28,105 nucleotides of DNA from assembly GCA_031255615.1 (NCBI GenBank), contig JAIRSD010000073.1, positions 1-28,105 of the forward strand. The letters are read 5' to 3'. The notes below the pieces were generated by a model, which did no database searches, was not told the DNA's origin, and saw only the letters and a list, made by a program, of their open reading frames with translations. Position numbers and translations under genes: made by a program. The DNA is from Treponema sp. (GTDB taxonomy: Bacteria; Spirochaetota; Spirochaetia; Treponematales; Breznakiellaceae). Below are positions 6,082 to 26,560 of this stretch, piece after piece (position 1 is the stretch's first letter; every line of letters starts with the position of its first letter).

Positions 6082-6350
6082 TATGTTGGGCGCATCCCCG
6101 GCGCTTCGCGCCGGGGACCGGGCTATCCGCTCTAACAAAAACCCTGCGGGTTTTTATTCCGCTCCTATCCCTTGCGCGGTTCTGCTGACCAAAACGCTGC
6201 GCGTTTTGGTCCGGCGTCCCTGCCGTTTTTGCGGGCCTGTGAGTTTTGGCGTGAAGCGCCAAAACTCCTGGAACTTATCCCCCCGCGCCGGCATCCCTGC
6301 CGCCGCGCCCTGTCTTTTTTGGACCGCGCCGGAGGCGGCATTGCGGCAAA
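6082..6350 (+). repeat. modular hairpin repeat, copy 1
   Basis: It begins with the shared block GGGCGCATCCCC. Perfect or near-perfect hairpins follow: arms 6096-6104/6108-6116 (loop TTC), 6134-6144/6148-6158 (loop TGC, one mismatch), 6188-6197/6201-6210 (loop TGC) and 6241-6251/6257-6267. The shared word CTATCCCTTGCGCGG lies at about 6165-6179. It fills most of the divergent gap between the two ABC operons. Short open frames across it are repeat translation, not genes. Confidence 0.8.
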
Positions 6351-6351
6351 A

Positions 6352-6380
6352 TTGACAAATTGGTATTATTTGTCTAAAGA
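6352..6380 (+). promoter_or_regulatory. candidate promoter/operator of the peptide ABC operon
   Basis: A consensus TTGACA (6352-6357) is followed after 17 bases by a weak -10, TAAAGA (6375-6380). An inverted repeat GACAAAT (6354-6360) / ATTTGTC (6368-6374) overlaps the -35 and could be an operator. If used, the transcript has a leader of about 150 bases containing the two-hairpin element. Confidence 0.4.
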
Positions 6381-6411
6381 TGGTCTAGGCCCCCGCGGGC
6401 CCGCGAAGATT

Positions 6412-6502
6412 GGGCTTGTTCAATAACCCGGTTGGTTATTGAACAAGCCCTGCGCTTCGTTTTTAAGCGGTTGTTGTTCAGAAACTTCAGTTTTTGAACA
6501 AC
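6412..6502 (+). repeat. two-hairpin element, copy A
   Basis: Hairpin 1 has 17-bp arms (6412-6428 and 6434-6450) around a 5-base loop. Hairpin 2 has arms 6473-6485 and 6490-6502 around TTCA, with one G-T position. They are joined by 22 bases. An inverted copy lies at 20880-21003. This copy sits 38 bases before the peptide-binding-protein gene, so it would form in its 5' leader. Confidence 0.8.
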
Positions 6503-6539
6503 CCTATTTAACAAAAAATTTGTTTCAAGGAGATCGACG

Positions 6540-8030
6540 ATGAAGGCGATAAAGTTTTTACCCCTGGTCCTGCTCATCTTTATTCCCTGCTCCCTGTCCG
6601 CCGGAGGAAGGGCCGCGGCGTCCCGGAATATGGAACTCCGCTACGGCTTTACCTCGGAACCGGCGACCCTCGATCCCCTGGATCCCTCCAACACGGCGGA
6701 CGGCCGGAGCATTCTTTTTAACGTCTTTGAGGGGCTGGTCCGGGTAGAACCCGACGGGGAATTGAAGCCCGCGGCGGCCTCCGCTTATACGGTGGAGCGG
6801 GGGGGGCTGATCTACCGGTTTACCCTGCGGGAGGGCCTGAAATTCCATAACGGGGAACCGGTAACCGTGGGGGACGTAAAATACACCCTGGATCAGGCCG
6901 CCGCCGCCAGGTACCAGGGCTTTACCCAGATTGAGGGGGTGGAAACCCCGGACAGGGCCACCGTTGTGGTTACCCTTAAGACCCCGGATGTGGAGTTCCT
7001 CCCCTACCTTACTATCGGGATTGTCCCGGCGGCCAACCCGGACCGGGAGAGGAATCCCGTCGGCACGGGGCCTTTTATGATCGAATCCTACACCACCCAG
7101 CAGAATCTGGTGCTGGCCAGGAACCCCCACTACTGGAAACCGGGCTTTCCCAAGCTGGACAAGGTGACCATCGTCTTCCTTGCCGATTCGGAGGCCCTGC
7201 TCCTCTCCCTCCGGGGGGGGAATATCGACGCCGCGGAGATCACCGGCTCCCTGGTTGACCAGCTTCCCGAAGGGGACTTCGACATTTTTTCCGGCTACTC
7301 CAACGCGGTCCAGCTTTTGGCCCTGAACAACGACGTGAAACCTTTGGACGATCTCCGGGTGCGGCGGGCCCTTAACTACGCGGTGGATCCGCGGGCCCTT
7401 ATTGACGCGGCCTTTTTCGGCCGGGGCGAAGTTTCCGGAAGCCCCCTTATCCCCGGACTTTCCAGGTACTACAACTCCGCCCTGGCGAATCCCTACCCCC
7501 ATGACCCGGAGCGGGCCAGGGCCCTGCTGCGGGAGGCCGGCTACGGAGAGGGCTTCCCCCTGGAGATTACGGTGCCGTCCAACTATACCATGCACGTAGA
7601 CACCGCCCAGGTAATCGTGAACCAGCTTGCCGCCGTAGGCGTGAAGGGGACTATCAAACTGGTGGACTGGGCGGCCTGGCTTTCCAACGTGTACCGGGGC
7701 CGGAACTATCAGGCCACCGTCATTTCCCTGGACGCCGCCAACAGTTCCCCCCGGATGTTCCTGTCCCGCTATCTTTCCTCCGGGGGCAGCAACTTTGTCA
7801 ACTTTAAGAACGCCGAGTACGACCGGGTCTACCAGGCCAGTCTGGAGGAGGGCGACGAAACGAAGCGGATCGCCCTGTACCGGGAGGCCCAAAAAATCAT
7901 CAGCGACAACGCCGCCGGCGTGTATATCCAGGATATTTACTTTTTCCGGGCCTTCCCCAAGGGGCGTTACACCAACGTCTTGAACTATCCCCTTTATGTG
8001 ACGGATTTCGCGTCGATTACGCCGCGCTGA
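6540..8030 (+). CDS. oligopeptide/dipeptide ABC substrate-binding protein (SBP family 5)
   Basis: A 496-residue extracytoplasmic binding protein of the DppA/OppA/NikA family. The N-terminus is a signal peptide (basic MKAIK, then a hydrophobic stretch to about residue 20). A Cys at 17 is not in a standard lipobox, so lipidation is uncertain, although spirochaete lipoboxes are loose. The family signature YRFTLREGLKFHNGEPV is present at about 90-107, and SEPATLDPLDPS is near the N-terminus. AAGGAG just upstream sets the start. It is the first gene of a five-gene importer operon, but 415 bases with a hairpin repeat separate it from the permease genes. The ligand could be peptides, nickel or glycosides; sequence does not decide. 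Confidence 0.93.
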   Translation: MKAIKFLPLVLLIFIPCSLSAGGRAAASRNMELRYGFTSEPATLDPLDPSNTADGRSILFNVFEGLVRVEPDGELKPAAASAYTVERGGLIYRFTLREGLKFHNGEPVTVGDVKYTLDQAAAARYQGFTQIEGVETPDRATVVVTLKTPDVEFLPYLTIGIVPAANPDRERNPVGTGPFMIESYTTQQNLVLARNPHYWKPGFPKLDKVTIVFLADSEALLLSLRGGNIDAAEITGSLVDQLPEGDFDIFSGYSNAVQLLALNNDVKPLDDLRVRRALNYAVDPRALIDAAFFGRGEVSGSPLIPGLSRYYNSALANPYPHDPERARALLREAGYGEGFPLEITVPSNYTMHVDTAQVIVNQLAAVGVKGTIKLVDWAAWLSNVYRGRNYQATVISLDAANSSPRMFLSRYLSSGGSNFVNFKNAEYDRVYQASLEEGDETKRIALYREAQKIISDNAAGVYIQDIYFFRAFPKGRYTNVLNYPLYVTDFASITPR

Positions 8031-8084
8031 GGGGCCCTTCGTTTGCCCGTCCGAAAAGGGCGCGGCGCGGGGGCCGGCTGTATT

Positions 8085-8275
8085 CAATGTTGGAGTTGCT
8101 GCGCTTCGCGCAGCAACTCCGAAGGCGCAAAACGGCAGGGACGCCGTTTTGCGCCCGCGCAAGGGATAGGAGGGGTGCGGAGCAGCCACGCCGCAGGCGG
8201 GGCCGGAGCGATAGCGGAGCCCCGGATAGCCCGGTCCCCGCCGGAGGCGGGGATGCGCCCAAAAACTCAACATTG
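8085..8275 (-). repeat. modular hairpin repeat, copy 2, bounded by inverted repeats
   Basis: The element is bounded by CAATGTTG (8085-8092) and CAACATTG (8268-8275), an exact 8-bp inverted repeat that continues as CTGTAT farther out on both sides. Inside are a 13-bp hairpin (8092-8104/8108-8120, loop TTC), a 10-bp hairpin near 8127-8152, and in reverse orientation the shared words of the family (GCGCAAGGGATAG near 8156; CCCCGCC-GGA-GGCGGGG followed by ATGCGCCC near 8236-8260). It lies within the peptide transporter operon. The layout resembles a MITE, but no target-site duplication is clear. Confidence 0.75.
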
Positions 8276-8276
8276 A

Positions 8277-8305
8277 GTCTATTATACAGCATGAGGTCTA
8301 TTATA
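8277..8305 (+). repeat. short direct repeat GTCTATTATA
   Basis: GTCTATTATA occurs at 8277-8286 and again at 8296-8305, a 19-base period, just outside the repeat element. The AT-rich words could be promoter or operator half-sites for the permease genes, but no -35 supports this. I see nothing else convincing between 8306 and 8445. Confidence 0.4.
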
Positions 8306-8445
8306 TCGGCGTAAACCGGGGGCGCCGTGAAGACAGGGGCCCTACTTGAAAACATGCCCCATATATGGTTAGGTAGGATCCGTTCGCCAGAGGGAGGTTC
8401 CTGGGGCGGCCTTGGGGGTGGACAGTCAAAAGACCGGAAACAGGG

Positions 8446-9462
8446 ATGGCACAAACAGCGGCTGAGACAAGGGGAATTTTGCAGGGGAAATCCGGGGGGA
8501 TCTGGCTTTTCCTGGGAAAGCGGCTGTCTATAACCCTGCTGACCCTTTTTTTGGTGTCCCTGCTGACCTTTCTTGCCTTCGCCGTCATTCCCGGGGATCC
8601 GGCGTTGATGGCCCTGGGGATCGAGGCCAGCGACGAACAGGTCGAGGCCCTGCGGAGGGAGATGGGGCTGGACCGGAGCCTGCCGGAACAGTACGGGGCC
8701 TGGGTGGGGAAATTCCTTACCGGGGACCTGGGGAATTCCGCCCGTTTCCGGGGGGCCCCAATCGCCGGGATGATCCTTGAACGGCTGCCGGTGACCTTCT
8801 GCCTCGCGAGTCTTTCCCTGCTTTTTATGATTCTTATCGCCGTCCCCGCGGTGTTGGCGCCGGCGCAAAGAGAGGGGGGGCCGCTGGACCGTACCGTGAA
8901 CGTTTTAACGGCCCTCAGCATCTCCTTTCCCGGTTTTTTCCTGGGGGTGCTTTTCATTTGGCTTTTCGGCATCCTGCTGAGGTTTTTTGTTCCCGGCGCT
9001 TATGTTGATTACCGCCAGGATCCTCTTTCCTTCGCGGCCTACCTGGTGTTCCCCGCCCTGGCCCTGGCGCTGCCCAACGCGGCGGTCCTGGTAAAATTTC
9101 TGCGGGCCCAGGTTTTGCGGCAGCTTCGGCAGGATTATGTGCGGAGCGCATTGGCCCGGGGGGCGGGGAAGCGGCGGATTCTCTACGGCCATGTACTGAA
9201 AAACGCGGTCATTCCCGGGGTAACTCTTTTGGGGATGATCGCGGGGGAGACCTTCGCGGGGAGCATCGTGATTGAACAGGTTTTCGGCATCCCCGGCATC
9301 GGGCGTCTTCTTATCAGTTCCATTACCAGCCGGGATTACGCCATGGTCCAGACCCTGACGGTATACATGGCTTTCATGGTGGTGCTGGGAAACACCCTGG
9401 CGGACATTCTTATCCGCATCATCGATCCCCGGATTTCCGCGGATACCCGGAGGGCGGCGTGA
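8446..9462 (+). CDS. peptide/nickel-type ABC transporter permease (DppB type)
   Basis: A 338-residue inner-membrane permease with about six membrane segments, the first at about 28-50. Family marks are the IPGDPA segment after the first helix, the long periplasmic loop with LGLDRSLPEQY-like sequence, and the coupling loop ARGAGKRRILYGHVLKNAVIPG. FGIPGIGRLLISSI near the C-terminus is diagnostic of DppB/OppB. The start is weak: there is no good Shine-Dalgarno site before 8446, and about 20 residues precede the usual family start. It overlaps the next permease gene by four bases (GTGA). Confidence 0.92.
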   Translation: MAQTAAETRGILQGKSGGIWLFLGKRLSITLLTLFLVSLLTFLAFAVIPGDPALMALGIEASDEQVEALRREMGLDRSLPEQYGAWVGKFLTGDLGNSARFRGAPIAGMILERLPVTFCLASLSLLFMILIAVPAVLAPAQREGGPLDRTVNVLTALSISFPGFFLGVLFIWLFGILLRFFVPGAYVDYRQDPLSFAAYLVFPALALALPNAAVLVKFLRAQVLRQLRQDYVRSALARGAGKRRILYGHVLKNAVIPGVTLLGMIAGETFAGSIVIEQVFGIPGIGRLLISSITSRDYAMVQTLTVYMAFMVVLGNTLADILIRIIDPRISADTRRAA

Positions 9463-10274
9463 GTTTTCCTTCGCTCAGGGCCGGGGAACTGGGGGCCGGG
9501 GCGGCGCTGGCGGTTCTGGTGGGGGGTCTTTCCCTGGCGAGCCTCTTTTGGGCCCCCTACGGCTACAACGACATGGAACCGGAAAGGCGTTTTCTTCCCC
9601 CCCATCGGGAGCATATCCTGGGGACCGATAATTTCGGCAGGGACGTGTTTTCCCGGATCATGGAGGGGGGCCGCTGCAGCCTCCTTTCCGCCCTGGTTAC
9701 GGTGGCCGGCAGCGCCGCCCTGGGGAGCATCCTGGGATTAAGCTCCGGCTACGCCGGGGGGCCGGCGGACGAGATTCTTATGCGCCTTATGGACGCCTTT
9801 AGCTCCTTCCCGGGAATCCTCCTGGCCCTGGTAATGGTGTCCCTCCTGGGAAACGGCGCGGGGACTCTGGTTATCGCCCTGCTGGTCCTTTTTATCCCCA
9901 GTTTTACCCGGATCATGCGGAGCGGCATGCTGCAAATCAAAAACCGGGACTTTGTTAAGGCCGCCCGCCTGTGGGGGGTTTCCCCGGGCAGGCTTATCTT
10001 CATCCACATCCTCCCCAACCTGCTGCCCTCCCTGCTTTCCGCGTCGGTCCTGGGGCTTTCCAACGCGATCCTCGCGGAGGCTACGATGAGCTACCTGGGC
10101 CTGGGGATTCAGCCTCCCCTGCCCAGTTGGGGGAGGATGCTGTCGGAATCCCAGAATTACCTTTTCAACGCTCCCTGGTGCGCCCTGGCGCCGGGGCTCA
10201 TGATCGTCTTAACCGTCATGGCCTTCCACTTTTTGGGGGAGGGCATCCGCCGCCGCCTTTCTCCGGGGGGTTGA
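9459..10274 (+). CDS. peptide/nickel-type ABC transporter permease (DppC type)
   Basis: A 271-residue inner-membrane partner of the DppB-type subunit. GTDNFGRDVFSRI near residue 48 is the DppC/OppC signature. The coupling loop is AARLWGVSPGRLIFIHILPN, and the C-terminal SYLGLGIQPPLPSWG motif is typical. The start codon is GTG, overlapping the TGA of the previous gene, with GGAGG five bases upstream. The ATPase gene follows with no gap (TGA then ATG). These contacts suggest tight translational coupling. Confidence 0.93.
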   Translation: MSFPSLRAGELGAGAALAVLVGGLSLASLFWAPYGYNDMEPERRFLPPHREHILGTDNFGRDVFSRIMEGGRCSLLSALVTVAGSAALGSILGLSSGYAGGPADEILMRLMDAFSSFPGILLALVMVSLLGNGAGTLVIALLVLFIPSFTRIMRSGMLQIKNRDFVKAARLWGVSPGRLIFIHILPNLLPSLLSASVLGLSNAILAEATMSYLGLGIQPPLPSWGRMLSESQNYLFNAPWCALAPGLMIVLTVMAFHFLGEGIRRRLSPGG

Positions 10275-11270
10275 ATGGCATACCTTTTAACGGTGAGGGA
10301 TCTCCGAATCGAAATCAAGGGGCGGGCCGCGGTGGAGGGGATCAGCTTCTCCATGGAGGAGGGGGAGATCCTAGGGATCGTGGGAGAATCGGGCTGCGGA
10401 AAGAGCCTGACCGCCCTCTCCATTCCCCTGCTGCTGCCGGAACCGGCCTCTATCGCCGGGGGGAGCGTCCTGTACCGGGGCCGGGATCTTTCCCTTTTGA
10501 ACGAAGGGGAGCTTAAGGATCTCCGGGGCAGGGAAATTTCCATGGTCTTCCAGGAACCCCGGTCTTCCCTTAACCCCCTAATCCGCGTCGGAAGGCAGAT
10601 AACCGAACCCCTGGAACTCCACGGCAAGGGAGACAGGGAGCTGAATAGACGGAGGGCCCTGGCCTTGATGGAGGACCTGGGGCTTCGGGAGGGGGAAAAA
10701 CTTCTGGACCTTTACCCCCACCAGCTTTCCGGGGGCATGTGCCAGCGGGTGATGATCGCCGCCGCCATGATCTGCGGCCCCCGGCTCCTTATCGCCGACG
10801 AACCTACCACCGCCCTGGATGTAAGTATCCAGGCTCAAATTTTGGGGCTGTTAAAGAAGATCAACCGGGAAACCGGGACGGCGATTCTCTTTATCTCCCA
10901 CGACCTGAGCGTGATTCGAAGCCTCTGCGGGAAGGTCCTGGTGATGTACGCGGGAAAGCTGGTGGAACGGGGGCCGGTGGAGGAAGTCTTCTCCCGTCCC
11001 GCCCATGAATACACCCGGGGCCTCCTGGGGGCCATACCGGGCCCCGCTTCCCGGGGCCGGCCCCTGGCGAACATTCCCGGCCGGGTGCCCCCCATCGAGG
11101 AGGATCGTCCGCCGGGCTGCCCCTTCGCCCCCCGCTGCCCCCGGGCGGCGGCGCCCTGCCGGGAAAGATTTCCCCCCGAAGCCGACCTGGGAGGGGGGCA
11201 TTCCGCCGCCTGCCTTGCCGCCTGCGACGCAGCCCGCGCCGCCGCCGGGACGCCGGAGGATCGCCGATGA
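10275..11270 (+). CDS. oligopeptide/nickel ABC transporter ATPase (DppD type)
   Basis: A 331-residue cytoplasmic ATPase that powers the importer with its DppF-type partner. Walker A GESGCGKS is at 37-44, the signature LSGGMCQR at 151-158, Walker B LLIADEP at 171-177 and the switch His at 209 (ISHDL). The C-terminus has the extension of this subfamily (PGRVPPI, then [11 protein letters not shown] with spaced cysteines), which is a sign of DppD/OppD-type proteins. Its stop overlaps the next ATG by four bases. Confidence 0.95.
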
Positions 11271-12058
11271 ACCTCCTTTCGGTGCGGGATCTTTCCGCCG
11301 CCTACGTCAGCCATTCCCTGGGCAGTTTCGGCAGGCGGATCGAAAGGCCGGTGCTTCACGGCGTCAACCTGGAAATCGCCGCCGCGGAGATCTTCGGCCT
11401 GGTAGGGGAATCGGGCTGCGGAAAAACCACCCTGGGACGCTGCATCCTGGGGCTCATGGATTACCGGGGGGAAATCGTTATCGACGGTCTCCGGCAGGGT
11501 AAAAAAGCGGACCGCGGGGAAATGGCCAGGCGGGTGCAGGCGGTATTCCAGGACCCCTCGGCCAGCCTCAATCCCGCCTGGAGGGCCGGCCGGATTCTGG
11601 AAGAACCCCTCAGGATAAACAGGATAGGCGGCGGGGCGGAACGGAAAAAACAGGTGGACCAGACCCTGGAACTGGTGGGGCTGGATCCTTCCTACAAGAG
11701 GCGGAGGGTGGACGAACTCTCCGTCGGCCAGAAACAGCGGATCTGCATCGGCTGCGCCCTGATGCTGCGCCCCCGGCTCATCATCGCCGACGAAGCGGTA
11801 AGCGCCCTGGACGTGTCGGTGGGGGCCCAGGTCCTCAACCTTTTCCGGGAACTCCACCAAAACCTGGGGCTCGGCATGCTTTTCATTTCCCACAACCTTA
11901 ACCAGGTCTCCTATCTCTGCGACCGCATCGCGGTTATGAAGGAAGGCCGTATTGTGGAACAGGGAGGGGCGGAAGAAATCTACCGGAATCCCCGGGACCC
12001 CTATACCCGGATGCTGCTGGAAGCGTCGCCGTCCATGCTTCCCTTCGCCCTCCCCTAA
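11267..12058 (+). CDS. oligopeptide/nickel ABC transporter ATPase (DppF type)
   Basis: A 263-residue second ATPase of the importer. Walker A GESGCGKT is at 47-54, Walker B LIIADEA at 171-177 and the switch His at 209 (ISHNL). The signature motif reads LSVGQKQR (151-158) rather than LSGGQ, and Walker B is followed by Ala rather than the usual Pro. The C-terminal oligopeptide extension seen in DppD is absent: the protein ends soon after EEIYRNPRDPYTRMLLEAS. This is the last gene of the operon. I see no intrinsic terminator in the 103 bases before the convergent TPR gene. Confidence 0.93.
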   Translation: MNLLSVRDLSAAYVSHSLGSFGRRIERPVLHGVNLEIAAAEIFGLVGESGCGKTTLGRCILGLMDYRGEIVIDGLRQGKKADRGEMARRVQAVFQDPSASLNPAWRAGRILEEPLRINRIGGGAERKKQVDQTLELVGLDPSYKRRRVDELSVGQKQRICIGCALMLRPRLIIADEAVSALDVSVGAQVLNLFRELHQNLGLGMLFISHNLNQVSYLCDRIAVMKEGRIVEQGGAEEIYRNPRDPYTRMLLEASPSMLPFALP

Positions 12059-12161
12059 TCCGCACCTCCTTCGGGGGCGGGAGCTCCGCGGGGCGGCGGC
12101 CCTCAGAAAAACCGCGGCGCGCGGCCCTTCGGTTCGGCCCCATCCTTGGAGGGGCTCGTTT

Positions 12162-13469
12162 TCAGGCCTCCCCTTCTCCGTCCTTCGCGGATAAATACCG
12201 GCGGGCCAGGGGATCCTCCGGCTCCAATTCCAGGACGGTGCGGAAAAAACCGGCCGCCTCCCCCTTGTTCCCCGTCTTCAGGGCCAGAACCCCCAGGTTG
12301 GAAATGATTTTAATGTTCTCCGCGTCCCGGCGCAGGGCGCTTTCCAACTGCCTCCGGGCCCCGGCATAATCCTTCAGTTCCATAAGGCAGATGGCAAGCT
12401 CGTTCCGGGTATCGCAGTTATCCCCCCCCAGCTCCACGGCCTTTTCCAGCGCGGAACGGGCGTCGGCCCAGCGTTCCAGCCGCCGCAGGGCCCAGCCCAG
12501 GAGGAACCAGCCGTTCCAGACCCCGGGCCGCCTTTCCAGGAAAAGCCGGATCCGGTCCATCCCCTCCCGTTCCCTGCCCCGGCGGACGCAGTCCCAGGCT
12601 TCCCGGAAATCCTCATCCTGTAGGCCGTGCTCCTCAATCTCCCGGGCCAGGGTCAGGGCGTTTTCCCTTTTTTCCGGGCTCAATTCAAAGCCCCCCGCCC
12701 CGTCGTCCTGATCCTCCAGGCTGCCGTAGGCCCTAAAACAAACCAGGGCCCGGCTGTAATCCCTGCGTTTCAGGAAAAAGAGGCCGGCGTTAAAAAGAAC
12801 GTCGGGGACCGGGTTTTCCAGGACCAGGGCTTCGCCGTAGACGGCCTCGGCGGCCAGATAGTCCCTTTCCGCCATGGTCTCCTGCCCCGCCCGCTCCAGG
12901 GCCGCCGCCCGCTCCTCAAGGACCAGGGCCTGGTTAAGAAGAACCGGGGAGGAACCGGGGCAGAGGGCCCGGAGGGCGGCCAATATTTCCAAGGCCAGGG
13001 CGTAATCGCCGTTCCGGGCCTTTAGAACCGCCGCCCCAGTAAGCTCCGCCTCAATTCCCGGCCGCAGGGACAGGACCAGGCGGCGGTAGTAGCCGGGCCA
13101 GCGGGGCGGCCCTCCCCCCTCCCCCGCCGGAGAAAAAGGGGGGGGAGATTCCTCTCCGGCCAGGACTCGGAGCATCCCGGAAAGAATCATCTCCAGGGTA
13201 ATCTCCTCGGGATTGATGCCTTCTTCGCCTTCCCCGCCGTTTTCACCGTCTTCCCCGGCGGGCAGCTCCACCGGGATGGGAATGGAGGGATCAAAGACAA
13301 AACCCGGCTCATCCTCCTCCGGGAGGGGATCCTCAGCGTCCCGCTGTACATGGCGGCGGACCTGCGACTGAATGTGGATCCCCAGGGATTCGGAAAGCCG
13401 GATAAAAACGATTCTGCCGCCGGGAGTTCGGGGATCCGGTTCCGGGGAATCGGCGGAAGAGGGTATCAA
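12162..13469 (-). CDS. TPR-repeat protein downstream of PilZ gene
   Basis: A 435-residue protein of unknown function. The N-terminal 110 residues contain a very acidic, Gly/Glu-rich linker (about 45-90). Helical repeats follow from about 150, with three good tetratricopeptide units over the last 110 residues (patterns such as GWALRRLERWADARSALEKA and LAICLMELKDYAGARRQLES). TPRs usually mediate protein-protein contacts. No signal peptide or membrane segment is seen. The apparent start is TTG at 13469, overlapping the TGA stop of the PilZ gene; I find no ATG or GTG with a ribosome site near it, so translation probably depends on coupling to PilZ. Confidence 0.75.
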   Translation of the reverse strand: MIPSSADSPEPDPRTPGGRIVFIRLSESLGIHIQSQVRRHVQRDAEDPLPEEDEPGFVFDPSIPIPVELPAGEDGENGGEGEEGINPEEITLEMILSGMLRVLAGEESPPPFSPAGEGGGPPRWPGYYRRLVLSLRPGIEAELTGAAVLKARNGDYALALEILAALRALCPGSSPVLLNQALVLEERAAALERAGQETMAERDYLAAEAVYGEALVLENPVPDVLFNAGLFFLKRRDYSRALVCFRAYGSLEDQDDGAGGFELSPEKRENALTLAREIEEHGLQDEDFREAWDCVRRGREREGMDRIRLFLERRPGVWNGWFLLGWALRRLERWADARSALEKAVELGGDNCDTRNELAICLMELKDYAGARRQLESALRRDAENIKIISNLGVLALKTGNKGEAAGFFRTVLELEPEDPLARRYLSAKDGEGEA

Positions 13470-14422: not shown

Positions 14423-14430
14423 CTTTTATA

Positions 14431-14459: not shown

Positions 14460-14505
14460 TGAATATGATCTTTGTCCCGCAATTCCCGGTTTAAAAGACA
14501 CCGCG

Positions 14506-14720
14506 TATCGAATGTATCCCGGGCGAATCCCCGCCTCCGGCGGGGACCGGGCTGTCAAGGCAGCCGCGGGCTGCCGGGGCTCCGCTGTCGCTCCGGCCCC
14601 GCCTGCGGCGCGGCTCCCCGCCCTTCCCCCGCCTTCGCGGTTAATCTTTACATCCGCCGGTCTTTCAGGCTAAGCGGCCTTGCCGCTATGGGCCGCAAAG
14701 TTCCGCCCCTTGCGGCGGAT
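14506..14720 (+). repeat. modular hairpin repeat, copy 3
   Basis: It starts with TATCGAATGTAT (14506-14517), also present in copy 6. Then come GGGCGAATCCCC, the hairpin 14529-14535/14539-14545 (loop TCC), GGCAGCC/GGCTGCC around GCG near 14559-14575, and a block near 14577-14620 that matches copy 2 (GGGGCTCCGCT then TCGCTCCGGCCCC). AGCGGC/GCCGCT around CTT lies at 14673-14687. It fills the gap between lon and the PilZ gene. Confidence 0.7.
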
Positions 14721-17522: not shown

Positions 17523-17686
17523 GGGCGCATCCCCGCCTCCGGCGGGGACCGGGCTATCCGCTCTAACAAAAACCCTGCGGGTTTTTGTTCCGCTTCTATC
17601 CCTTGCGCGGGCGCGGAACGGCGCCGTTCCGCGCCTTCCGCAGCGATACGGTTTTACGCCCGCGGGTTTTCGCTTCGCGAAAACCG
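17523..17686 (+). repeat. modular hairpin repeat, copy 4
   Basis: It begins with GGGCGCATCCCC. Hairpins are 17531-17537/17541-17547 (loop TCC), 17565-17575/17579-17589 (11-bp arms, loop TGC), a perfect 26-bp palindrome at 17610-17635, and 17665-17673/17677-17685 (loop TTC). The word CTATCCCTTGCGCGG lies near 17596-17610. It occupies the gap between the hydrolase and lon genes. Nothing else is recognisable in 17686-17815. Confidence 0.8.
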
Positions 17687-19762: not shown

Positions 19763-19767
19763 AGGTT

Positions 19768-19797: not shown

Positions 19798-19805
19798 CGC
19801 GGGGC

Positions 19806-19836
19806 TTGACAAAATCCGAAAGGTATTGTGTATAAT
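19806..19836 (+). promoter_or_regulatory. cysK promoter
   Basis: A consensus TTGACA (19806-19811) and a consensus TATAAT (19831-19836) are separated by 19 bases, longer than the ideal 17. The long spacer suggests an activator or other control. It partly faces the hydrolase promoter on the other strand. Confidence 0.6.
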
Positions 19837-19858
19837 ATCTATCAATTTACTAGGATAT
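19835..19858. promoter_or_regulatory. candidate operator for cysK
   Basis: ATATCTA (19835-19841) and TAGGATAT (19851-19858) form an imperfect palindrome overlapping the end of the -10 and the transcription start. The TACTAGGATAT half resembles sites of Rrf2-type cysteine regulators in other bacteria, but the match is from memory and weak. Confidence 0.3.
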
Positions 19859-19872
19859 ATCAGGAGGATGTC

Positions 19873-20793
19873 ATGGCGCTTGCGGAAAAAATTACGGACC
19901 TTATCGGAAACACCCCGCTGGTGAGGATCAACCGGATCAACGACGGGGGGGCGGTCATCTACGTTAAGCTGGAGAGTTTTAACCCCCTGCACAGCGTGAA
20001 GGACCGGATCGCCCTGGCCCTCATCGAGGCGGGGGAGCGGGAAGGGAAGATACGGGAAGGGACCGTCCTTATCGAACCGACCAGCGGGAATACGGGCATC
20101 GGCCTGGCCTATGTGGCGGCGGTCAAGGGCTACCGGATCATCCTGACCATGCCGGAGACCATGAGCCTTGAGCGGCGGAAGCTGCTTAAGGCCCTGGGGG
20201 CGGAACTGGAGCTTACCGAGGGGGCCAGGGGCATGAAGGGGGCCATCGCCAGGGCGGAGGAGCTGGCCGCCGCCATCCCCAATGCCTTTATCCCCCAGCA
20301 GTTCAACAACCCCGCCAACCCGGAAATCCACGAAAAGACCACGGGGCCGGAAATCTGGAAAGACACGGAAGGGAAGATCGACATCCTTATCGGCGGGGTG
20401 GGCACCGGAGGGACCGTCACCGGGGCGGGGAAGTACCTGAAGGCCCGGAAGCCCGGCATCCAGGTGATTGCCGTGGAGCCCTCCACCAGCCCGGTCCTTT
20501 CCGGCGGCAGCCCCGGGCCCCACAAGATCCAGGGGATTGGGGCGGGTTTTGTGCCCCTAGTCTACGACAGGACGGTGGTGGACGAGATATACCAGACCGA
20601 CGATATCAAGGCCGGAACCGTCGCCCGGCTGCTTGCCAAAAAGGAGGGAATCCTGGCGGGCATCTCCTCCGGTTCCGCCCTGGAAGCGGCCCTTACAGTC
20701 TCCCGGCGGCCGGAAAACAAGGGCAAGGTCATCGTCGCGGTCCTCCCCGACACGGGGGAGCGCTACCTGTCCACCTGGCTCTGGGAAGACTAG
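19873..20793 (+). CDS. cysK: cysteine synthase A (O-acetylserine sulfhydrylase)
   Basis: A 306-residue PLP enzyme that makes L-cysteine from O-acetylserine and sulfide in the cytosol. The PLP lysine is Lys43 in SVKDR. The substrate-binding loop TSGNTG is at 70-75, the phosphate-binding GGVGTGGT at 174-181, and the cofactor Ser region SSGSA at 265-269. The length is standard for CysK/CysM. I chose the ATG at 19873 because AGGAGG lies five bases upstream and conserved sequence starts at once; the longer frame from 19828 begins inside the promoter. It is monocistronic, with no cysE beside it. No T-run terminator follows; a strong hairpin starts 87 bases downstream. Confidence 0.96.
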
Positions 20794-20879
20794 TACTTTG
20801 CTTAAGCTAAATCACCGGATAAGCGGAACGACCGGGAACAGGAATTTTAGCCACAATGGTACACGAAGGAATGAATAGA

Positions 20880-21003
20880 GTTGTTCAGAAACTTCTGTTT
20901 CTGAACAACAACCGCTTAGAAATGAAGAAAAGCGTGGATTTCCTCGGACAACCCGCGTTTTTCGCAAGGCTTGTTCAATAACCAACCGGGTTATTGAACA
21001 AGC
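20880..21003 (-). repeat. two-hairpin element, copy B (inverted)
   Basis: Hairpin 2 (20882-20911) has perfect 13-bp arms around TTCT; hairpin 1 (near 20968-21003) has arms of about 16 bp. Relative to copy A the order is inverted, and the linker is about 55 bases rather than 22. The word AACCGCTTA beside hairpin 2 is shared with copy A. It lies between cysK and the transposase remnant. Confidence 0.75.
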
Positions 21004-21580
21004 CTAATAAGCGATTCCTAAAGTAAAACGCTGCGCCGGGCGCAGGCCCGGTAGACTGCGAATAGGATACGGTGCACTACGATGCCCGATAATCAAATAC
21101 CCCCGGCAAAGTCGGGGGATTGTTTTTGTGAACCGCTCAAAGCGGTTTGTTTTGGAGCCGCCTACAGGCGGATTTGGGTGTTGGCTGTCTTTGAACATTT
21201 CCAGATGATCTTGATGCTTGTCTTCATCTTCCTGTCCCAGGATAAACTTCCTTATGGGCGTTTCGTCCCGGCCTACCGTCGATACAAAATATCCTCTCGC
21301 CCGGAAATTCTGCCCCGTGAAATTGTTCCCTTTCCCCAGATGCGTCCGGGCCATCGCTATCGCGCTCTTCCCCTTGATGTATCCTACCACGGTCGATACC
21401 CCATGCTTCGACGGTATTTCTATCAGCATATGGATGTGATCTGAGCATACATGCCCCTTCACTATCTTGCTTTCCCGCTGTTCGGCCAATCCGTGGAATA
21501 TCTCCCCTAAATCCGGGGCCGCTTCCCCATAGAGCTTCTTCTTCCGATACTTCGGTATCCTATAATCGAGGTACGAGCGG
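21004..21580 (-). pseudogene. IS200-type TnpA transposase remnant
   Basis: The minus-strand frame matches IS200 single-strand transposases from an IPKYRKKKLYG segment through CSDHIHML (the HUH motif), GYIKGKSAI and ARGYFVSTVGRDE. The helix that should carry the catalytic Tyr reads KFILGQ where IS200 has a Y in the F position, so the nucleophile appears lost. No ATG, GTG or TTG is found in frame upstream of the IPKYR segment, back to the recQ stop; the first start-like codon is a TTG at 21489, inside the domain. The frame also runs through the terminal hairpins before stopping at 21004. A dead copy is the simplest reading. Confidence 0.75.
21036..21171. repeat. hairpin cluster, probable right end of the IS200 remnant
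   Basis: Four hairpins lie in a row: CCGGGC/GCCCGG (21036-21051), CCCCCG/CGGGGG (21100-21118), AACCGCT/AGCGGTT around CAA (21131-21147) and CCGCC/GGCGG around TACA (21158-21171). IS200-family ends carry subterminal hairpins bound by TnpA. The exact termini cannot be set here. A CCGGTCC/GGACCGG hairpin near 21629-21644 may belong to the other end. Confidence 0.5.
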
Positions 21581-21705
21581 ATCGCCGGGACCCTGAGTTT
21601 CTTTCGCCGGGGTTCTTCTGGGTGCGCCGGTCCCCGGACCGGTGATGTAAGGCGAGGGGGTACATCGTCAGGGACGGTTTCAGCGGGTATCCGGGGCCGG
21701 CCTCC

Positions 21706-23613
21706 TCAGGAACGCCCGTGTTCCCGAATCGCCGCCAGAAAGAGGTCCCCGTATTTTTCCAGCTTTATGGTTCCCACGCCGCTGACGGCGAGGAAGGATT
21801 CCCTGGTTTGGGGCTTTTTCCTGCACATATCCCAGAGGCTGCTGTCGGAAAAGACAATGTAAGCCGGTATATGGGCCTCCCGTGCCAGGTTTCCCCGCAG
21901 TTCCTTAAGCCGGAGAAAGAGGGACTCCTCCGGCTGCTCCGCCTCCCCTTCCGCCTCCTCAGGGAGGCCCCGCTCAACCGGGGCCGGCGGCCGCCCTTCG
22001 GGCCGGAGCCGCCGGCCTTTTCCGGGGCCTTCGCGCTTAAGCTCCCCCGGCAGCATCATCGAAAGGAAAGCGGCCCCGGCAAAAATTTCCCGCCACCGGG
22101 GGCCCAAAGACAACACCGGATACTCGCCCCCTTCGAGGACCAGATAGCCTTCGGCGACCAGATGATCCATGATAAGCCGGATTCGGTGGGATTCCTCGGC
22201 GGCCATGATTCCGTAGGTGCTTAAGGTGTCGCAGCGGGAGGCGCGGATCTTTTCACTGCCGCTGCCCCGGAGAATATCGGCCACCATGGTTTTGCCGAAA
22301 GACCGGTTCCGCTCTTTAAGCCGGTATACGCAGGAGACGATCTTCTGCGCGGGGACGGTGATGTCGGTCTCCTCAAAAATCGTGTCGCAGTTCGAACAAT
22401 TACCGCAGTAGGCGGGGGAGCTCTCCCCGAAATACCCCAGAAGCCGGGATCGCAGACAGTCAGAACCGGTAGCGTAAAAGGTCATCGCCTTAAGAAGTTC
22501 CAGGTTGTGTTCCACCAGGGCTTCATCCCGGAGGCCCTCGTCATCCTGGCTGTTGTTGATGAGGTAGGTATTGATCCGTACATCCTGGGGACTGTAGAGG
22601 AGGATGCAGTCCGCCCTTTCCCCGTCCCTCCCCGCCCGCCCGGCCTCCTGGTAATAGCTTTCGATGTTCTTGGGCATATTGTAATGAATCACGAAGGAGA
22701 CATTCGATTTATCGATTCCCATGCCGAAGGCGTTGGTGGCGACCATGGTGGGCTTGCGGTCGTAGATAAAATCATCCTGATTCCTCCGCCGCTCCCCGTC
22801 CTCAAGACCCGCGTGGTAGCGGGTTGCCGCGAATCCTTCGGCGGACAGCGCCCGGCAAAGTTCATCCACGGTTTTCCTGGTGGCGCAGTAGATGATCCCG
22901 CTCTTGCCCGGCCGGTCCCGCAAACAGTCCAGGAGGGTCCTCAATTTGTCCTGCGGCCTCCGCACCTCGAAGTACAAATTCTTCCGGTCGAAACCGGTGC
23001 GCTGAATCAGCGGATCCTCCAGACCCAGAATCCGGTGAATGTCTTCCCGCACCTTCCCCGTGGCGGTGGCGGTAAAAGCGGCGGTAACGGGCCGTTCCTC
23101 AATGCGGCGGATAAAACCGGCGATCTCCAGATAGCTGGGCCGGAAATCGTGGCCCCACTGGGAGGCGCAGTGGGCCTCGTCAATGACCACCAGGGCAATC
23201 CTGGGCCCCTCCGTCGATTCGGCGAGACCAAAGGGAAGGCCCCTGCGGAGCCGCTCCGGGGCAACGTAAAGAATATTGTATTCCCCCCGGACCGCCCGGG
23301 AGATCGTTTCTCCGTATTCGCCGGGACTCTGGGAACTATTGAGGAAGGCCGCGGGAATCCCGGCATCCCGCAGGGCCTTTACCTGATCTTTCATCAGGGA
23401 GATGAGGGGCGAAATAACCAGGGTAAGGCCTTCAAGCAGCAGGGCGGGGATCTGGTAACAAAGGGATTTCCCCGCCCCCGTCGGCATCACCGCCAATACG
23501 TCCCGGCCTTCCAGGATAGCGTCAATGACTTCCTCCTGGCCGGGCCGGAATTGACTGTAGCCGAAACGCTCCTTCAGTATCCGGCGCTTCTCGCCCCCCC
23601 GCCGATCCGTCAT
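21706..23613 (-). CDS. recQ: ATP-dependent DNA helicase RecQ
   Basis: A 635-residue superfamily 2 3'-5' helicase for recombination and fork repair. It has the Q-motif region (17-30), Walker A PTGAGKS (44-50), DEAH (145-148), TATAT (181-185) and QEAGRAGRD (motif VI, 322-330). Zinc-binding cysteines are at 386, 403, 406 and 409, then a winged-helix region. After a charged linker (about 525-562) there is a C-terminal HRDC domain (about 563-632), so the architecture is complete. The start is uncertain: ATG 23613 has no close Shine-Dalgarno site, but TACATT ends seven bases before it. The frame stays open to 23712, with another ATG at 23670, but that part lies in a hairpin repeat. Confidence 0.95.
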   Translation of the reverse strand: MTDRRGGEKRRILKERFGYSQFRPGQEEVIDAILEGRDVLAVMPTGAGKSLCYQIPALLLEGLTLVISPLISLMKDQVKALRDAGIPAAFLNSSQSPGEYGETISRAVRGEYNILYVAPERLRRGLPFGLAESTEGPRIALVVIDEAHCASQWGHDFRPSYLEIAGFIRRIEERPVTAAFTATATGKVREDIHRILGLEDPLIQRTGFDRKNLYFEVRRPQDKLRTLLDCLRDRPGKSGIIYCATRKTVDELCRALSAEGFAATRYHAGLEDGERRRNQDDFIYDRKPTMVATNAFGMGIDKSNVSFVIHYNMPKNIESYYQEAGRAGRDGERADCILLYSPQDVRINTYLINNSQDDEGLRDEALVEHNLELLKAMTFYATGSDCLRSRLLGYFGESSPAYCGNCSNCDTIFEETDITVPAQKIVSCVYRLKERNRSFGKTMVADILRGSGSEKIRASRCDTLSTYGIMAAEESHRIRLIMDHLVAEGYLVLEGGEYPVLSLGPRWREIFAGAAFLSMMLPGELKREGPGKGRRLRPEGRPPAPVERGLPEEAEGEAEQPEESLFLRLKELRGNLAREAHIPAYIVFSDSSLWDMCRKKPQTRESFLAVSGVGTIKLEKYGDLFLAAIREHGRS

Positions 23614-23669
23614 CCGTTGAATGTAAACCTCCCCCCCAAAGAGCGGCCTCCGGTTCAGAAAACACCCCA

Positions 23670-23760
23670 TATCGAATGTATGCTGGACGCATTTTTTGCG
23701 GCTCCGCCGCAAAAAAACTCAGGCTTCGCTCCAATTCCCCGTCCCGCGGGGCAGCTTAAT
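23670..23760. repeat. modular hairpin repeat, copy 6 (short)
   Basis: TATCGAATGTAT (23670-23681) matches the edge of copy 3. An 11-bp hairpin (23692-23702/23706-23716, loop TCC) follows, then a short CCCCG/CGGGG hairpin near 23738-23752. The core words of the larger copies are absent. It fills the gap between the aconitase-family and recQ genes. Confidence 0.55.
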
Positions 23761-23769
23761 GACGCTGTC

Positions 23770-26142
23770 CTACAGACGCCCCCGGTTGTAGTTGATAAGA
23801 CTCCCCGCCAAAAGAACCGCCCGTTCCACGGCGTTCATGTCCGGCATGGCAAGGACAAAGGGAAGGGGCTTTGTCCCGGATCCCCCGCCGCCGGGAACAG
23901 CCTCGTCCTTCAGGACAACCCAAGCGTCCAGCGCCGGGGCCCCGGTTTCCACCGCCTTTCTGATACCGGGGATGAACACATAGCCCCCGTTCCCAAAGAG
24001 GGGCTCCCCCTCGACGGTGAAGGGAAGGATCCCCCAGTTGATAAGGTTGCTGCGGTACCGTTTGGTGGCGTATTCATTGGCGAAATTCGCCGCCCCTCCC
24101 AGGACCCGCTGGCAGCTTGCGGCCTGTTCCCGGGCGCTGCCGTCCCCGGGCTTGCGGGCGAAGATCGCCGATCCAAACTGGGGGAGGCCCCGAGGATTGA
24201 GGCCCTTGAGCACCGCAAGGACGGCGGCAAATTCGGGAAGTTCCCCGGAACCGCTTCCGGGGTCTCCGTCCCGCCGCAGGGCCTCGCTCTGCCGCCGCAC
24301 CGCCTTGGCCCGGCCCACGTAGGCGGGATCTTTGCGGGACAGGGTATATTCCGCCAGCCCCAGGGGGTTAGACCGGAAGGAAGATGTCTCCCCGGAGGGG
24401 ATAAGCTCGTCGGTGGTGGTTACCGGATCGGTAATAAAGGACACAATTTTAAGCAGCAGGTCTTCCCCCAGGGCCTCCGTCTCCGGCCAGTCGCTGATGT
24501 TGGGCCCGTAGACAAGCTCCACCCCCCGGTCCGGCTTCCCCGCGCCCCGGTATACCCGAACCCGGTAAGGGCCGTCGTCGTAACGGTAGGCCGGAGGCTT
24601 TTCCTCAAGGCCCAGGGATTCCGCGGAGGCCAGACAGCCGCCGTTCAGGGCGGTGGCGGCGATGCTGCGGGCGTCCATCAAGGCTACCGAGGCGATCTGT
24701 CCGCCGCCGGGCTTGCTTCCCTCCCGGTTGGGAAAATTCCGGGTGGTGTGGCGGATGGAGAATCCGTTGTGGGCCGGTACGTCCCCGGCGCCGAAACAGG
24801 GTCCGCAGAAGGCGCTGCGGAGCACCGCGCCCCTTTCAAGGAGGGACGCGGCGGTACCGTTGCGGGTAAGTTCCAGCATCACCGGCTGGCTGCCGGGGTA
24901 CACCGAAAGGGAGAAGGCCCCCGGCCCGCCGCCGCCCTGCCTGCCGCTCTCCAGGACGGCCGCCGCCGCCGTGATATTGTCAAAGGTTCCTCCAGCGCAG
25001 CCGGCGATGATCCCCTGATCTACCTGGATACGGCCCTTCCCCTTGATCTTGTCCCGCAGTTTTAAAGGAACCCGGGGATTCTCCAGGACGGCCGCCGCCG
25101 CCCGTTCCACCTCGGCAAAAATATCCCCGCCGTTTTCCAGCACCTCATCAATTTGGTATACGTTGCTGGGATGGAAAGGCAGGGCGATCATGGGTTTGAG
25201 CGCGGAAAGGTCGATCTCCACCAGGCCGTCGTAGTAGGCGCAGGGGGCCGGGGAAAGTTTCCGGTAATCCCGGGCCCTGCCGTGGATCGTGAGGAACTCC
25301 TGCACCCGCTCGTCGGTCTCCCAGATCGAAGACCAGCAGGTAGTTTCGGTGGTCATCACGTCGATTCCCGCGCGGAAATCTATAGGCAGGCTGCGGATTC
25401 CGGGCCCCGCGAACTCCAGCACCGCGTTCTTTACCAGCCCCTCTTTGAAAACCGCGCCCACCAGGGCCAGGGCCGCGTCCTGGGGTCCCAGGCCGGGCCG
25501 GGGCTCCCCCCGGAGGTACACCAGAATCACCCGGGGATAGGGCATGTCGTAACTCTGTTTAAGGATCTGCTTTACCAGCTCCCCGCCCCCCTCGCCGACC
25601 CCCATGGTTCCCAGGGCCCCGTAGCGGGTGTGGCTGTCGCTGCCCAGGATCATCTTGCCGCAGCCCGCGGCTTCCTCCCGGACAAAGGAGTGGATCACCG
25701 CCAGGTGGGGGGGCACATAGACCCCGCCGTAGCGCCGGGCCGCGGAGAGTCCGAAAAGATGATCGTCCTCGTTGATCGTCCCCCCCACGGCGCAGAGGGA
25801 GTTGTGGCAGTTGGTCAGGTAATAGGGAATGGGAAAGGAGTCCATGCCGCTTACCCTGGCGGTCTGGACGATATTTACAAAGGTAATGTCGTGGGAGGCC
25901 ATGGCGTCGAAGGAGAGGGCGAGGGGATTCCCGGGACCGATGGGGCCGTCCCCCCGGTGGTGGGCCGCCAAAATCCCATAGGCCATCGTGCCCCGCCGGG
26001 CTTCCTCCGGCCGGGGCGCTCCGCCGGCCTCCCGCCCATACCGCGATCCCAGCCGCGCCAAAAGCCCCGCCTGTTCCGGGGAATCTTCGACAATCTCCTT
26101 TCCCCCGAACAAATACACCCCTCTACCGCTTACCCGTAGCAT
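23770..26142 (-). CDS. aconitase-family hydratase (YbhJ-like)
   Basis: A 790-residue member of the aconitase/isopropylmalate-isomerase superfamily. The [4Fe-4S] ligands are present as Cys382 (GCAGG) and Cys446/Cys449 (CGPC). GSDSHT (167-172) and RNF (468-470) match conserved active-site segments. The C-terminal swivel domain is present (ATKRYRSNLINWGILPF) but the usual SSRxHAAL arginine motif of aconitases is not, as in the divergent YbhJ-type hydratases. The substrate is therefore open; citrate/isocitrate should not be assumed. GGGAGG four bases upstream supports the start. No citrate synthase or isocitrate dehydrogenase is nearby. Confidence 0.88.
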   Translation of the reverse strand: MLRVSGRGVYLFGGKEIVEDSPEQAGLLARLGSRYGREAGGAPRPEEARRGTMAYGILAAHHRGDGPIGPGNPLALSFDAMASHDITFVNIVQTARVSGMDSFPIPYYLTNCHNSLCAVGGTINEDDHLFGLSAARRYGGVYVPPHLAVIHSFVREEAAGCGKMILGSDSHTRYGALGTMGVGEGGGELVKQILKQSYDMPYPRVILVYLRGEPRPGLGPQDAALALVGAVFKEGLVKNAVLEFAGPGIRSLPIDFRAGIDVMTTETTCWSSIWETDERVQEFLTIHGRARDYRKLSPAPCAYYDGLVEIDLSALKPMIALPFHPSNVYQIDEVLENGGDIFAEVERAAAAVLENPRVPLKLRDKIKGKGRIQVDQGIIAGCAGGTFDNITAAAAVLESGRQGGGGPGAFSLSVYPGSQPVMLELTRNGTAASLLERGAVLRSAFCGPCFGAGDVPAHNGFSIRHTTRNFPNREGSKPGGGQIASVALMDARSIAATALNGGCLASAESLGLEEKPPAYRYDDGPYRVRVYRGAGKPDRGVELVYGPNISDWPETEALGEDLLLKIVSFITDPVTTTDELIPSGETSSFRSNPLGLAEYTLSRKDPAYVGRAKAVRRQSEALRRDGDPGSGSGELPEFAAVLAVLKGLNPRGLPQFGSAIFARKPGDGSAREQAASCQRVLGGAANFANEYATKRYRSNLINWGILPFTVEGEPLFGNGGYVFIPGIRKAVETGAPALDAWVVLKDEAVPGGGGSGTKPLPFVLAMPDMNAVERAVLLAGSLINYNRGRL

Positions 26143-26199
26143 CGCGCCTCCCCTGAATTTTTCGGATTCCGAATCCGGAACCGGTTTTTACACAGCCGA

Positions 26200-26233
26200 G
26201 GCTTGTTTCAAAACTTCAGTTTTGAAACAAGCC
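26200..26233. repeat. single hairpin related to the two-hairpin elements
   Basis: Perfect 15-bp arms (26200-26214 and 26219-26233) around TTCA. It shares the GGCTTGTT outer arm with hairpin 1 and the AAAC-TTCA-GTTT tip with hairpin 2 of copy A. It lies 58 bases upstream of the aconitase-family gene and could overlap its promoter. Confidence 0.65.
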
Positions 26234-26297
26234 CGTCATAATGAAAAATACCAATTTAACGGCCGCGGATCCAGTGATTCAGGCGGTTCCGGTTTCG

Positions 26298-26560
26298 GCC
26301 CAACGGGGCGCAGCCCCTGTCCGTTCCAATAAGGGGGGCCGAATAAAAACGCGGGGCCTTCTGGTTTTTTGGAGCCGGCGCAGGGAGTGCGCCGGCTCCC
26401 GTCCCGCCGGAGAAATCCCCCGAGTTTTTGCGGAGCAAAAACTCACAAGGTGAAAGCCGGAGGCTTTCGCCGCGCAAGGGATAGGAGCGGAACAAAAACC
26501 CGCAGGGTTTTTGTTAGAGCGGATAGCCCGGTCCCCGCCGCAGGCGGGGATGCGCCCAAA
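26298..26560 (-). repeat. modular hairpin repeat, copy 5
   Basis: In reverse orientation to copies 1, 3 and 4. Hairpins: 26305-26309/26313-26317 (loop GCA), 26371-26382/26388-26399 (12 bp), 26422-26431/26435-26444 (loop GGA), 26452-26458/26462-26468 (loop GGA), 26491-26501/26505-26515 (loop GCA; same stem as copy 4) and 26533-26539/26543-26549 (loop GCA), ending in ATGCGCCC. It separates the lipid kinase and aconitase-family genes. Small open frames here are not credible. Confidence 0.8.

What the first reader, a model, noticed from the sequence alone, without database searches (positions are those of the whole stretch)
6082..26560. A dispersed, modular family of hairpin repeats with constant blocks and exchanged stems
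Copies at 6082-6350, 8085-8275, 14506-14720, 17523-17686 and 26298-26560, plus a short relative at 23670-23760, share constant words: GGGCGCATCCCC (GGGCGAATCCCC in copy 3), then GGGGACCGGGCTATC, then CTATCCCTTGCGC. Copy 3 matches the last word only loosely and copy 6 lacks the core. Between these words sit different hairpin modules: copies 1, 4 and 5 carry an 11-bp AACAAAAACCC stem, while copies 2 and 3 carry a GGGGCTCCGCT block instead. Constant edges with swapped, self-complementary interiors suggest copying or recombination of modules rather than simple decay. I do not know a named family that fits.
Basis: seen in the sequence. Interest (0 to 1): 0.72.

Follow-up and report, generated by a model that had tools for sequence, protein, structure and literature searches.

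The report
Divergent Flavo-1 hairpin repeats in Treponema
The scattered hairpin repeats are divergent copies of Flavo-1, a catalogued but unexplained "small RNA" family; copies from two bacterial phyla share a larger three-armed fold than the catalogue shows and behave more like a DNA repeat than like an RNA gene.

Summary
In detail: three near-complete copies, one with a replaced interior, one head and one scrap. A named family fits: Rfam RF01705 "Flavo-1", whose model lies on the opposite strand. Window copies score 22.5-28.1 bits (cut-off 42), but copies with the same words in related Treponema score up to 64 and Flavobacterium copies up to 85.7. The Rfam model covers one arm only. A model built here adds a closing helix and a second arm (three-way junction); over 82 copies from Spirochaetota and Bacteroidota 95.7% of pair cells are standard and 27 of 31 pairs show changes on both sides. 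Copies are intergenic, with no significant orientation bias relative to genes or replication; G-U pairs are rarer than in a small tRNA control; a HuH transposase lies nearby at 1 of 41 tested loci. Against plain junk, one Flavobacterium site keeps the element in place and orientation in 20 of 20 (selected) relatives. Best reading: a DNA-level interspersed element whose folded purine-rich strand is selected and which spreads rarely by an unknown route. An RNA role is not excluded. New variant of a known family; function open.

The parts
6088..6177 (-). c1: near-complete element (strand = purine-rich, Rfam strand); P3 = AACAAAAACCC stem
   Evidence: R1 78.8 bits (training row); RF01705 22.5 bits, cut-off 42
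8157..8260 (+). c2: element with intact outer words and P2 but replaced interior
   Evidence: R1 43.8 bits, E 1.8e-7, bias 14.7, not a training row; its minimum-free-energy fold is not the three-way junction
14521..14591 (-). c3: head (P2 and GGGGACCGGGCTGTC) with unrelated interior
   Evidence: R1 17.9 bits, E 0.057: weak
17523..17608 (-). c4: near-complete element
   Evidence: R1 80.9 bits (training row); RF01705 25.3 bits; fold -43.9 kcal/mol, z -4.63
26472..26557 (+). c5: near-complete element, opposite orientation to c4
   Evidence: R1 80.4 bits (training row); RF01705 28.1 bits
23685..23717 (-). c6: scrap, GGACGCAT plus one hairpin, no core
   Evidence: alignment, position; no R1 match
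17604..17608 (-). c4 P1, 5' arm on the purine strand (GCGCA)
   Evidence: pairs with 17525-17529; P1 covaries in 4 of 5 pairs over A4
17525..17529 (-). c4 P1, 3' arm on the purine strand (TGCGC)
   Evidence: as above
17531..17547 (-). c4 P2 hairpin, sequence free
   Evidence: 7 of 7 P2 pairs with changes on both sides over A4
17565..17589 (-). c4 P3 hairpin (AACAAAAACCC stem), the exchanged module
   Evidence: family D1; P3 region 11 of 12 pairs with changes on both sides over A4

Best explanation
Structure (shown by covariation): the purine-rich strand forms a three-way junction. A 5-bp closing helix P1 (GCGCA/UGCGC here) encloses a long arm and a free hairpin P2. The long arm is GGG/CCC, UA/UA, GC/GC with two conserved 3x3 purine internal loops, ending in a free hairpin P3. 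Rfam models only the long arm. Mechanism (inferred): it acts as DNA. The purine-rich strand folds when single-stranded, the folded linkers are recognised by an unknown protein, and rare copying places the P1-closed unit into intergenic DNA in either orientation. Copies then persist vertically, while stems are exchanged between copies or perfected by hairpin-templated repair, which keeps pairing without keeping sequence. Who copies it, and whether the host uses it, is not shown. Confidence: identity about 0.97, three-way junction about 0.95, DNA-level behaviour about 0.5.
For: Rfam hits on relatives with the same words, 50.9-63.6 bits in L052, L006, L022, and 86 matches in G001. Covariation: 95.7% of cells paired against 73.7% shuffled, 27 of 31 pairs with changes on both sides, 432 such cells against 112. 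P1 covaries: GCGCA/TGCGC, GCGTG/CACGC, GCGTT/AACGC. The repeated unit c4/c5 ends at P1. Patchy copy number: 86 in G001, 0 in the other genome of its genus. Gene orientation classes 10, 8, 6, 5 of 29 scorable copies; gap types as in all gaps; replication 39:42 and 28:41. Stem exchange. G-U 24 of 2280 cells against 13 of 180 in tRNA stems. Published: Flavo-1 hits lie indistinctly sense or antisense to transcribed regions and many lie outside (PMC9723704, passages).
Against: One Flavobacterium site is kept in place and orientation in 20 of 20 relatives fetched (selected set), others in 10 of 15 and 5 of 13, which suggests function and little movement. G-U exceeds A-C in hand-paired P2 (15 to 3) and in A5 (9 to 0), as selection on a folded strand, RNA or DNA, would give; in A4 it is 24 to 21. 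In G352, tandem gaps show 17 antisense to 8 sense, p 0.11. No copying enzyme and no target duplication found. c3 and c6 share flank beyond P1.
Confidence: 0.5

Rival explanations
1. Flavo-1 is what Rfam calls it: a structured RNA, either many sRNA genes or mRNA leader/trailer elements that bind a protein through the purine loops.
For: Strong covariation; purine strand folds better than its complement (-43.9 against -38.8 kcal/mol for c4); G-U over A-C 15:3 in P2; 20 of 20 at one Flavobacterium site and one orientation in 10 of 15 at another; several 5' transcribed regions coincide with Flavo-1 hits (PMC9723704, passages); Rfam type sRNA.
Against: No significant orientation bias to genes in Treponema (29 copies) or Flavobacterium (35 copies); G-U scarce; at the 20-of-20 site the element lies upstream of a promoter-like block rather than next to the coding start; the transcriptome paper found no consistent strand.
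Confidence: 0.33
2. A REP-type element mobilised as single-stranded hairpin DNA by a HuH (Y1) TnpA_REP transposase.
For: Dispersed, intergenic, palindromic; subclass 2.6 TnpA_REP of Bacteroidetes is flanked by 'atypical secondary structures' with copies elsewhere (PMC6006769, section 25); a half-copy lies about 165-245 nt after the Y1_Tnp ORF of Schleiferia (L057).
Against: R1 hits 1 of 41 Y1_Tnp loci; no Y1_Tnp match in G001 (86 copies), G002 (16), G011 (24), G013 (13), G025 (22), G047 (14); no GTAG or CGTC in c1, c4, c5; no replication-strand bias. The 41 loci were not sorted into subclasses.
Confidence: 0.07
3. A MITE-like element of an unseen DDE or recombinase transposon, with outer inverted repeats as its ends.
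For: Some G001 copies have an outer inverted repeat CTTCGATTCGG...CCGAATCGAAG (L094, L089); one site is occupied in 3 and empty in 4 of 7 Flavobacterium relatives.
Against: No target duplication seen by eye in the 50 G001 flanks (two of them cut by contig ends) or at the window copies; conserved internal linkers and covarying internal stems are not expected of a MITE.
Confidence: 0.08

Closest known systems
Rfam RF01705 Flavo-1
   Same: Same linkers, long arm with the same pairs and 3x3 purine loops, same free P3; hits at the same places as model R1
   Different: Window copies score below the cut-off; their P3 joins directly to GGAA without the AAUC/GAUU base. P1 and P2 are absent from the Rfam model. 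Catalogued as sRNA of Bacteroidetes (PMC2864571, table row seen in passages)
Rfam RF03162 TD-2
   Same: Another high-copy hairpin family in some of the same Treponema genomes (64 in G050, 63 in G051, 8 in G001, 4 in G002); a sub-threshold match (42.5 bits, cut-off 48.7) abuts a Flavo-1 copy in L021
   Different: Different model; no match in 5 of 9 genomes tested, among them the three Flavobacteriaceae; none in the window at E up to 2
REP elements with TnpA_REP (RAYT); GTAG- and CGTC-tagged repeats
   Same: Dispersed intergenic palindromes in high copy; CGTC repeats were reported in Bacteroidetes and Spirochaetes (PMC3733652, one passage)
   Different: 100-nt three-way junction rather than one 20-40 nt hairpin; no tag in c1, c4, c5; transposase beside 1 of 41 loci

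Membership tests
Rfam Flavo-1 (RF01705) | Score at or above the gathering cut-off (42 bits) | tested here: not met
   Window copies 28.1, 25.3, 22.5 bits; none for c2, c3, c6. Same-word relatives pass: 63.6, 60.1, 50.9 bits. Hence filed as a divergent variant
Rfam Flavo-1 (RF01705) | Consensus linkers and long-arm pairs | tested here: met
   Window matches run over model positions 1-76 with the linker words conserved (alignments); c1, c4, c5 fold that way unaided
Rfam Flavo-1 (RF01705) | Function as a transcribed RNA | not testable with these tools
   No expression data; published transcriptome gives no consistent strand (PMC9723704, passages)
REP / TnpA_REP | Cognate HuH transposase flanked by copies | tested here: not met
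   1 of 41 Y1_Tnp loci, flanks of at most 1.5 kb; subclasses not separated
REP / TnpA_REP | GTAG or CGTC tag at the hairpin foot | tested here: not met
   Neither word in c1, c4, c5; one or other somewhere in 22 of 82 A4 rows, place not examined
MITE | Terminal inverted repeats with target-site duplication | tested here: inconclusive
   Outer inverted repeat in some G001 copies, no duplication seen by eye; no near-identical genome pair compared
Rfam TD-2 (RF03162) | Match to the model in the window | tested here: not met
   No TD-2 match at E up to 2

The most novel reading that the evidence does not exclude
Flavo-1, catalogued as an sRNA, is really a DNA-level interspersed element shared by Bacteroidota and Spirochaetota. 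Its purine-rich strand folds into a three-way junction recognised as single-stranded DNA, and stems are swapped and re-perfected between copies, so that pairing is inherited without sequence: a new kind of structured chromosomal repeat with an unknown partner protein.
Probability: 0.4. Interest if true: 0.7.

Novelty: new variant of a known kind. Interest (0 to 1): 0.5.

Why it matters
Flavo-1 is named in a review's section on the most abundant small RNAs with no function given (PMC9029176, passages). If it is a DNA repeat, many 'sRNA' annotations mislead. If it is an RNA, its three-way junction and orientation-blind placement need explaining. The extended model, the orthologous sites and the stem-exchange pattern make both readings testable in culturable Flavobacterium.

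Tried and rejected
Phages and plasmids: no blastn match for c4 with flanks; the 20-base core is absent from viral contigs.

Rfam at gathering gave nothing for the window; the family appeared only through relatives.

HuH/RAYT partner: rejected as a general partner.

Of the 55 stretches of the 19-base scan, 45 are Spirochaetota. Five (L008, L011, L036, L046, L053) lack the anatomy and were set aside by eye as chance hits. L050 (Syntrophomonadaceae) shows only the head and has no R1 match at E 0.01, so spread to that phylum is not claimed.

Replication-strand bias: none found, but only the listed 81 of 138 (G352) and 69 of 108 (G343) matches were used, and origin/terminus were guessed from GC skew of 20 stretches each; the skew of G343 is noisy.

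A first ORF caller called lon on the wrong strand; it was replaced by a codon-score caller that returns the Pfam-supported window genes, most of which were its training seed. Of 52 copies given to it, 19 lay at a locus edge and 4 overlapped an ORF; 29 were counted.

One search (tRNA parsing) gave nothing and was replaced. mis-parsed some P3 stems; the module table was redone.

Literature: searches showed no paper in the listings or passages seen that describes the three-way junction or dispersed-repeat behaviour of Flavo-1; the library is open-access only and I read passages, not whole papers.
Full report
OBSERVATION. The core word occurs in five true copies, far beyond chance (0.15 expected with up to 2 mismatches). 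c1, c4 and c5 are near-complete, c2 has another interior, c3 is a head and c6 a scrap. c4 and c5 agree over 88 nt, ending at the closing helix plus 2 nt; c3 and c6 share a further left flank. All six lie between genes; neighbours include ABC-transporter, PilZ, TPR, lon, recQ and aconitase genes.

IDENTITY. A scan of one genome per species for a 19-base core gave 55 stretches, 45 of them in Treponema/Spirochaetaceae MAGs (sample names suggest termite guts, from recall), 4 in Flavobacteriales. Their common anatomy is GGGCG[CA or TG]TCCC - hairpin - GGGACCGGGCTATCCGCTC - hairpin - CCGCTNCTATCCCT[TG or CA]CGC. Rfam at relaxed threshold named it: Flavo-1, RF01705, on the other strand, 50.9-63.6 bits in L052, L006 and L022 (cut-off 42) and 25.1 in L021. 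The window copies reach 28.1, 25.3 and 22.5 bits (E 0.039, 0.23, 1.3), so Rfam alone would not report them. Flavobacterium copies reach 85.7 bits.

STRUCTURE. Rfam pairs GGG/CCC, UA/UA, GC/GC, AAUC/GAUU and P3, with 3x3 internal loops GAA/GGA and GGA/GGA (consensus). I added P1 and P2 from 28 copies (A3) and built R1. R1 finds 82 matches in 81 sources, 58 from Spirochaetota and 24 from Bacteroidota; 80 rows are distinct, and 22 are training rows given by the same reference, a few more being training elements fetched under another locus. On that alignment 95.7% of cells pair, 27 of 31 pairs have changes on both sides and 432 cells carry such changes; shuffles give 73.7%, 19.3 and 112, none of 500 reaching the observed values. 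The alignment is fitted to the structure and the rows are related, so these numbers lean towards it; slid structures fall to 47.9% or less. The minimum-free-energy folds of c1, c4 and c5 give the same three-way junction unaided, z -4.36 to -4.63; c2 and c3 fold otherwise, z -1.63 and -2.06. The held-out copy c2 scores 43.8 bits (E 1.8e-7, bias 14.7).

DISTRIBUTION. Matches at E 0.001 or better: G001 86, G002 16, G003 5, G004 58, G005 7, G006 5, G007 and G008 0. Thirty of 41 Flavobacteriaceae and 113 of 121 Flavobacterium genomes (at most 35 candidates scored per genome) have it. G343 has 108 and G352 138 (at most 150 scored). The other genome of G001's genus has none. None of 14 control genomes has it.

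CONTEXT. In the window and related Treponema loci, 29 scorable copies fall in the four gene-orientation classes 10, 8, 6 and 5. In G352, 35 of 36 copies were scored: tandem 25, divergent 6, convergent 4, like all gaps of 100 bp or more (122, 29, 21); the 36th is called inside an ORF whose predicted start runs through the element. In the tandem gaps 17 are antisense and 8 sense (p 0.11), and 23 of 35 genes on the element's 5' side point away (p 0.09): weak hints, not significant. Replication: 39:42 and 28:41, pooled p 0.22.

TURNOVER AND PERSISTENCE. Of 26 Treponemataceae genomes with at least 300 bp upstream of lon, 24 have no R1 match there; G051 has one in the opposite orientation, and G050 one in the same orientation as c4 at a similar distance. 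Against rapid movement, in Flavobacterium the site between ddl and a PASTA gene carries Flavo-1 in the same orientation in 20 of 20 relatives fetched, 18 over the cut-off and 2 at 35.8 bits. These were chosen: 19 because their BLAST match spanned the site, which favours occupied sites, and G245 because a listed hit lay there; genomes whose match starts beyond the site were not looked at. Flanks are largely unalignable, linkers intact, P3 different. A second site is occupied in 3 and empty in 4 of 7 relatives. A third, 5' of the gene at L262:3483, is occupied in 10 of 15 loci in one orientation (L333 only roughly placed); its 3' side in 2 of 15; a further site in 5 of 13. G352 itself has, by eye, a copy with a swollen P3 at the third site.

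MODULE EXCHANGE. In 36 G352 copies, short P2 with and without the CGGGGTTCGG apex: 4 and 8; long P2 with and without: 11 and 13 (by eye one copy moves, giving 12 and 12). In G390 the copies at two sites share nearly the same P3, while the orthologous copies in G352 carry two other hairpins. In G001 many copies share a run-of-T GCC P3 with differing P2. This supports module copying; compensatory point change also occurs (GTGAGCC/GGCTCAC and ATAAGCC/GGCTTAT around one apex).

RNA OR DNA. G-U makes 24 of 2280 cells in A4, with A-C 21 and other mismatches 74; in A5 G-U is 9, A-C 0, others 14 of 1542. In G352 P3 stems G-U is 4 of 317, 7 of 36 copies skipped. In 15 tRNAs from the same sequences G-U is 13 of 180. 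Scarce G-U speaks for DNA-level perfection of stems; but hand-paired P2 stems show G-U over A-C 15 to 3 (p 0.008), tRNA is one small control, and G-T also beats A-C in DNA (recalled). The F. psychrophilum transcriptome paper says Flavo-1 hits lie indistinctly in sense or antisense of transcribed regions and many outside (PMC9723704, passages). That Flavo-1 also occurs in Spirochaetes was, I recall, noted before; the table seen lists Bacteroidetes (PMC2864571, passages).

PARTNER. Quentin et al. 2018 report atypical structures beside subclass 2.6 TnpA_REP genes in Bacteroidetes (PMC6006769, section 25 and passages). R1 hit 1 of 41 Y1_Tnp loci, and six copy-rich genomes had no Y1_Tnp match (G001 and G002 are fragmented MAGs). 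Subclass 2.6 was not tested separately.

CONCLUSION. Divergent Flavo-1 elements with an enlarged, well-supported structure. A DNA-level repeat is favoured over an sRNA gene, persistence at some sites being the main counter-evidence.

Noticed in passing
window 21004-21489 (-): IS200-like Y1 transposase ORF matching only profile positions 36-118; N-terminal part missing in this frame.
   Followed up: no
window 6409-6508 and 20874-21008: A second pair of hairpins (GGCTTGTTCAATAACC..., GTTGTTCAGAAACTTC...) occurs at both places in inverted order, the latter beside the IS200-like ORF; a relative lies at 26202-26231, and similar stretches occur in two related genomes, L207 and L208.
   Followed up: no
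window 14486-14528 and 23650-23692: c3 and c6 share about 35 nt of left flank outside the element (79%), so some copies may belong to a larger unit.
   Followed up: no
L089, L094 (G001): Outer inverted repeat CTTCGATTCGG...CCGAATCGAAG encloses Flavo-1 and an extra piece; many other G001 copies show only the right half, TATTCCGAATCGAA.
   Followed up: partly
L018:7397-7498, L030:1749-1851, L051:621-727: Variant with an extra piece inserted between CTATC and the last CCCTTGCGC word, recurring at several G001 loci.
   Followed up: no
L057:1474-1857 and 2022-2103: In Schleiferia the Y1_Tnp ORF ends YIKNQKQHH, the motif given for subclass 1.2, and a Flavo-1 half-copy lies downstream among CCAACGATTAAAATCGTTGG hairpins.
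   Followed up: partly
L021:1483-1584 (-), L021:3046-3135 (+): TD-2 (RF03162) matches, one abutting Flavo-1 and below the cut-off, one above it; TD-2 reaches 63-64 matches in two Treponema genomes.
   Followed up: partly
L262:3155-3345: Flavo-1 copy with a P3 swollen by about 100 nt, missed by the Rfam model, at an orthologous site.
   Followed up: no
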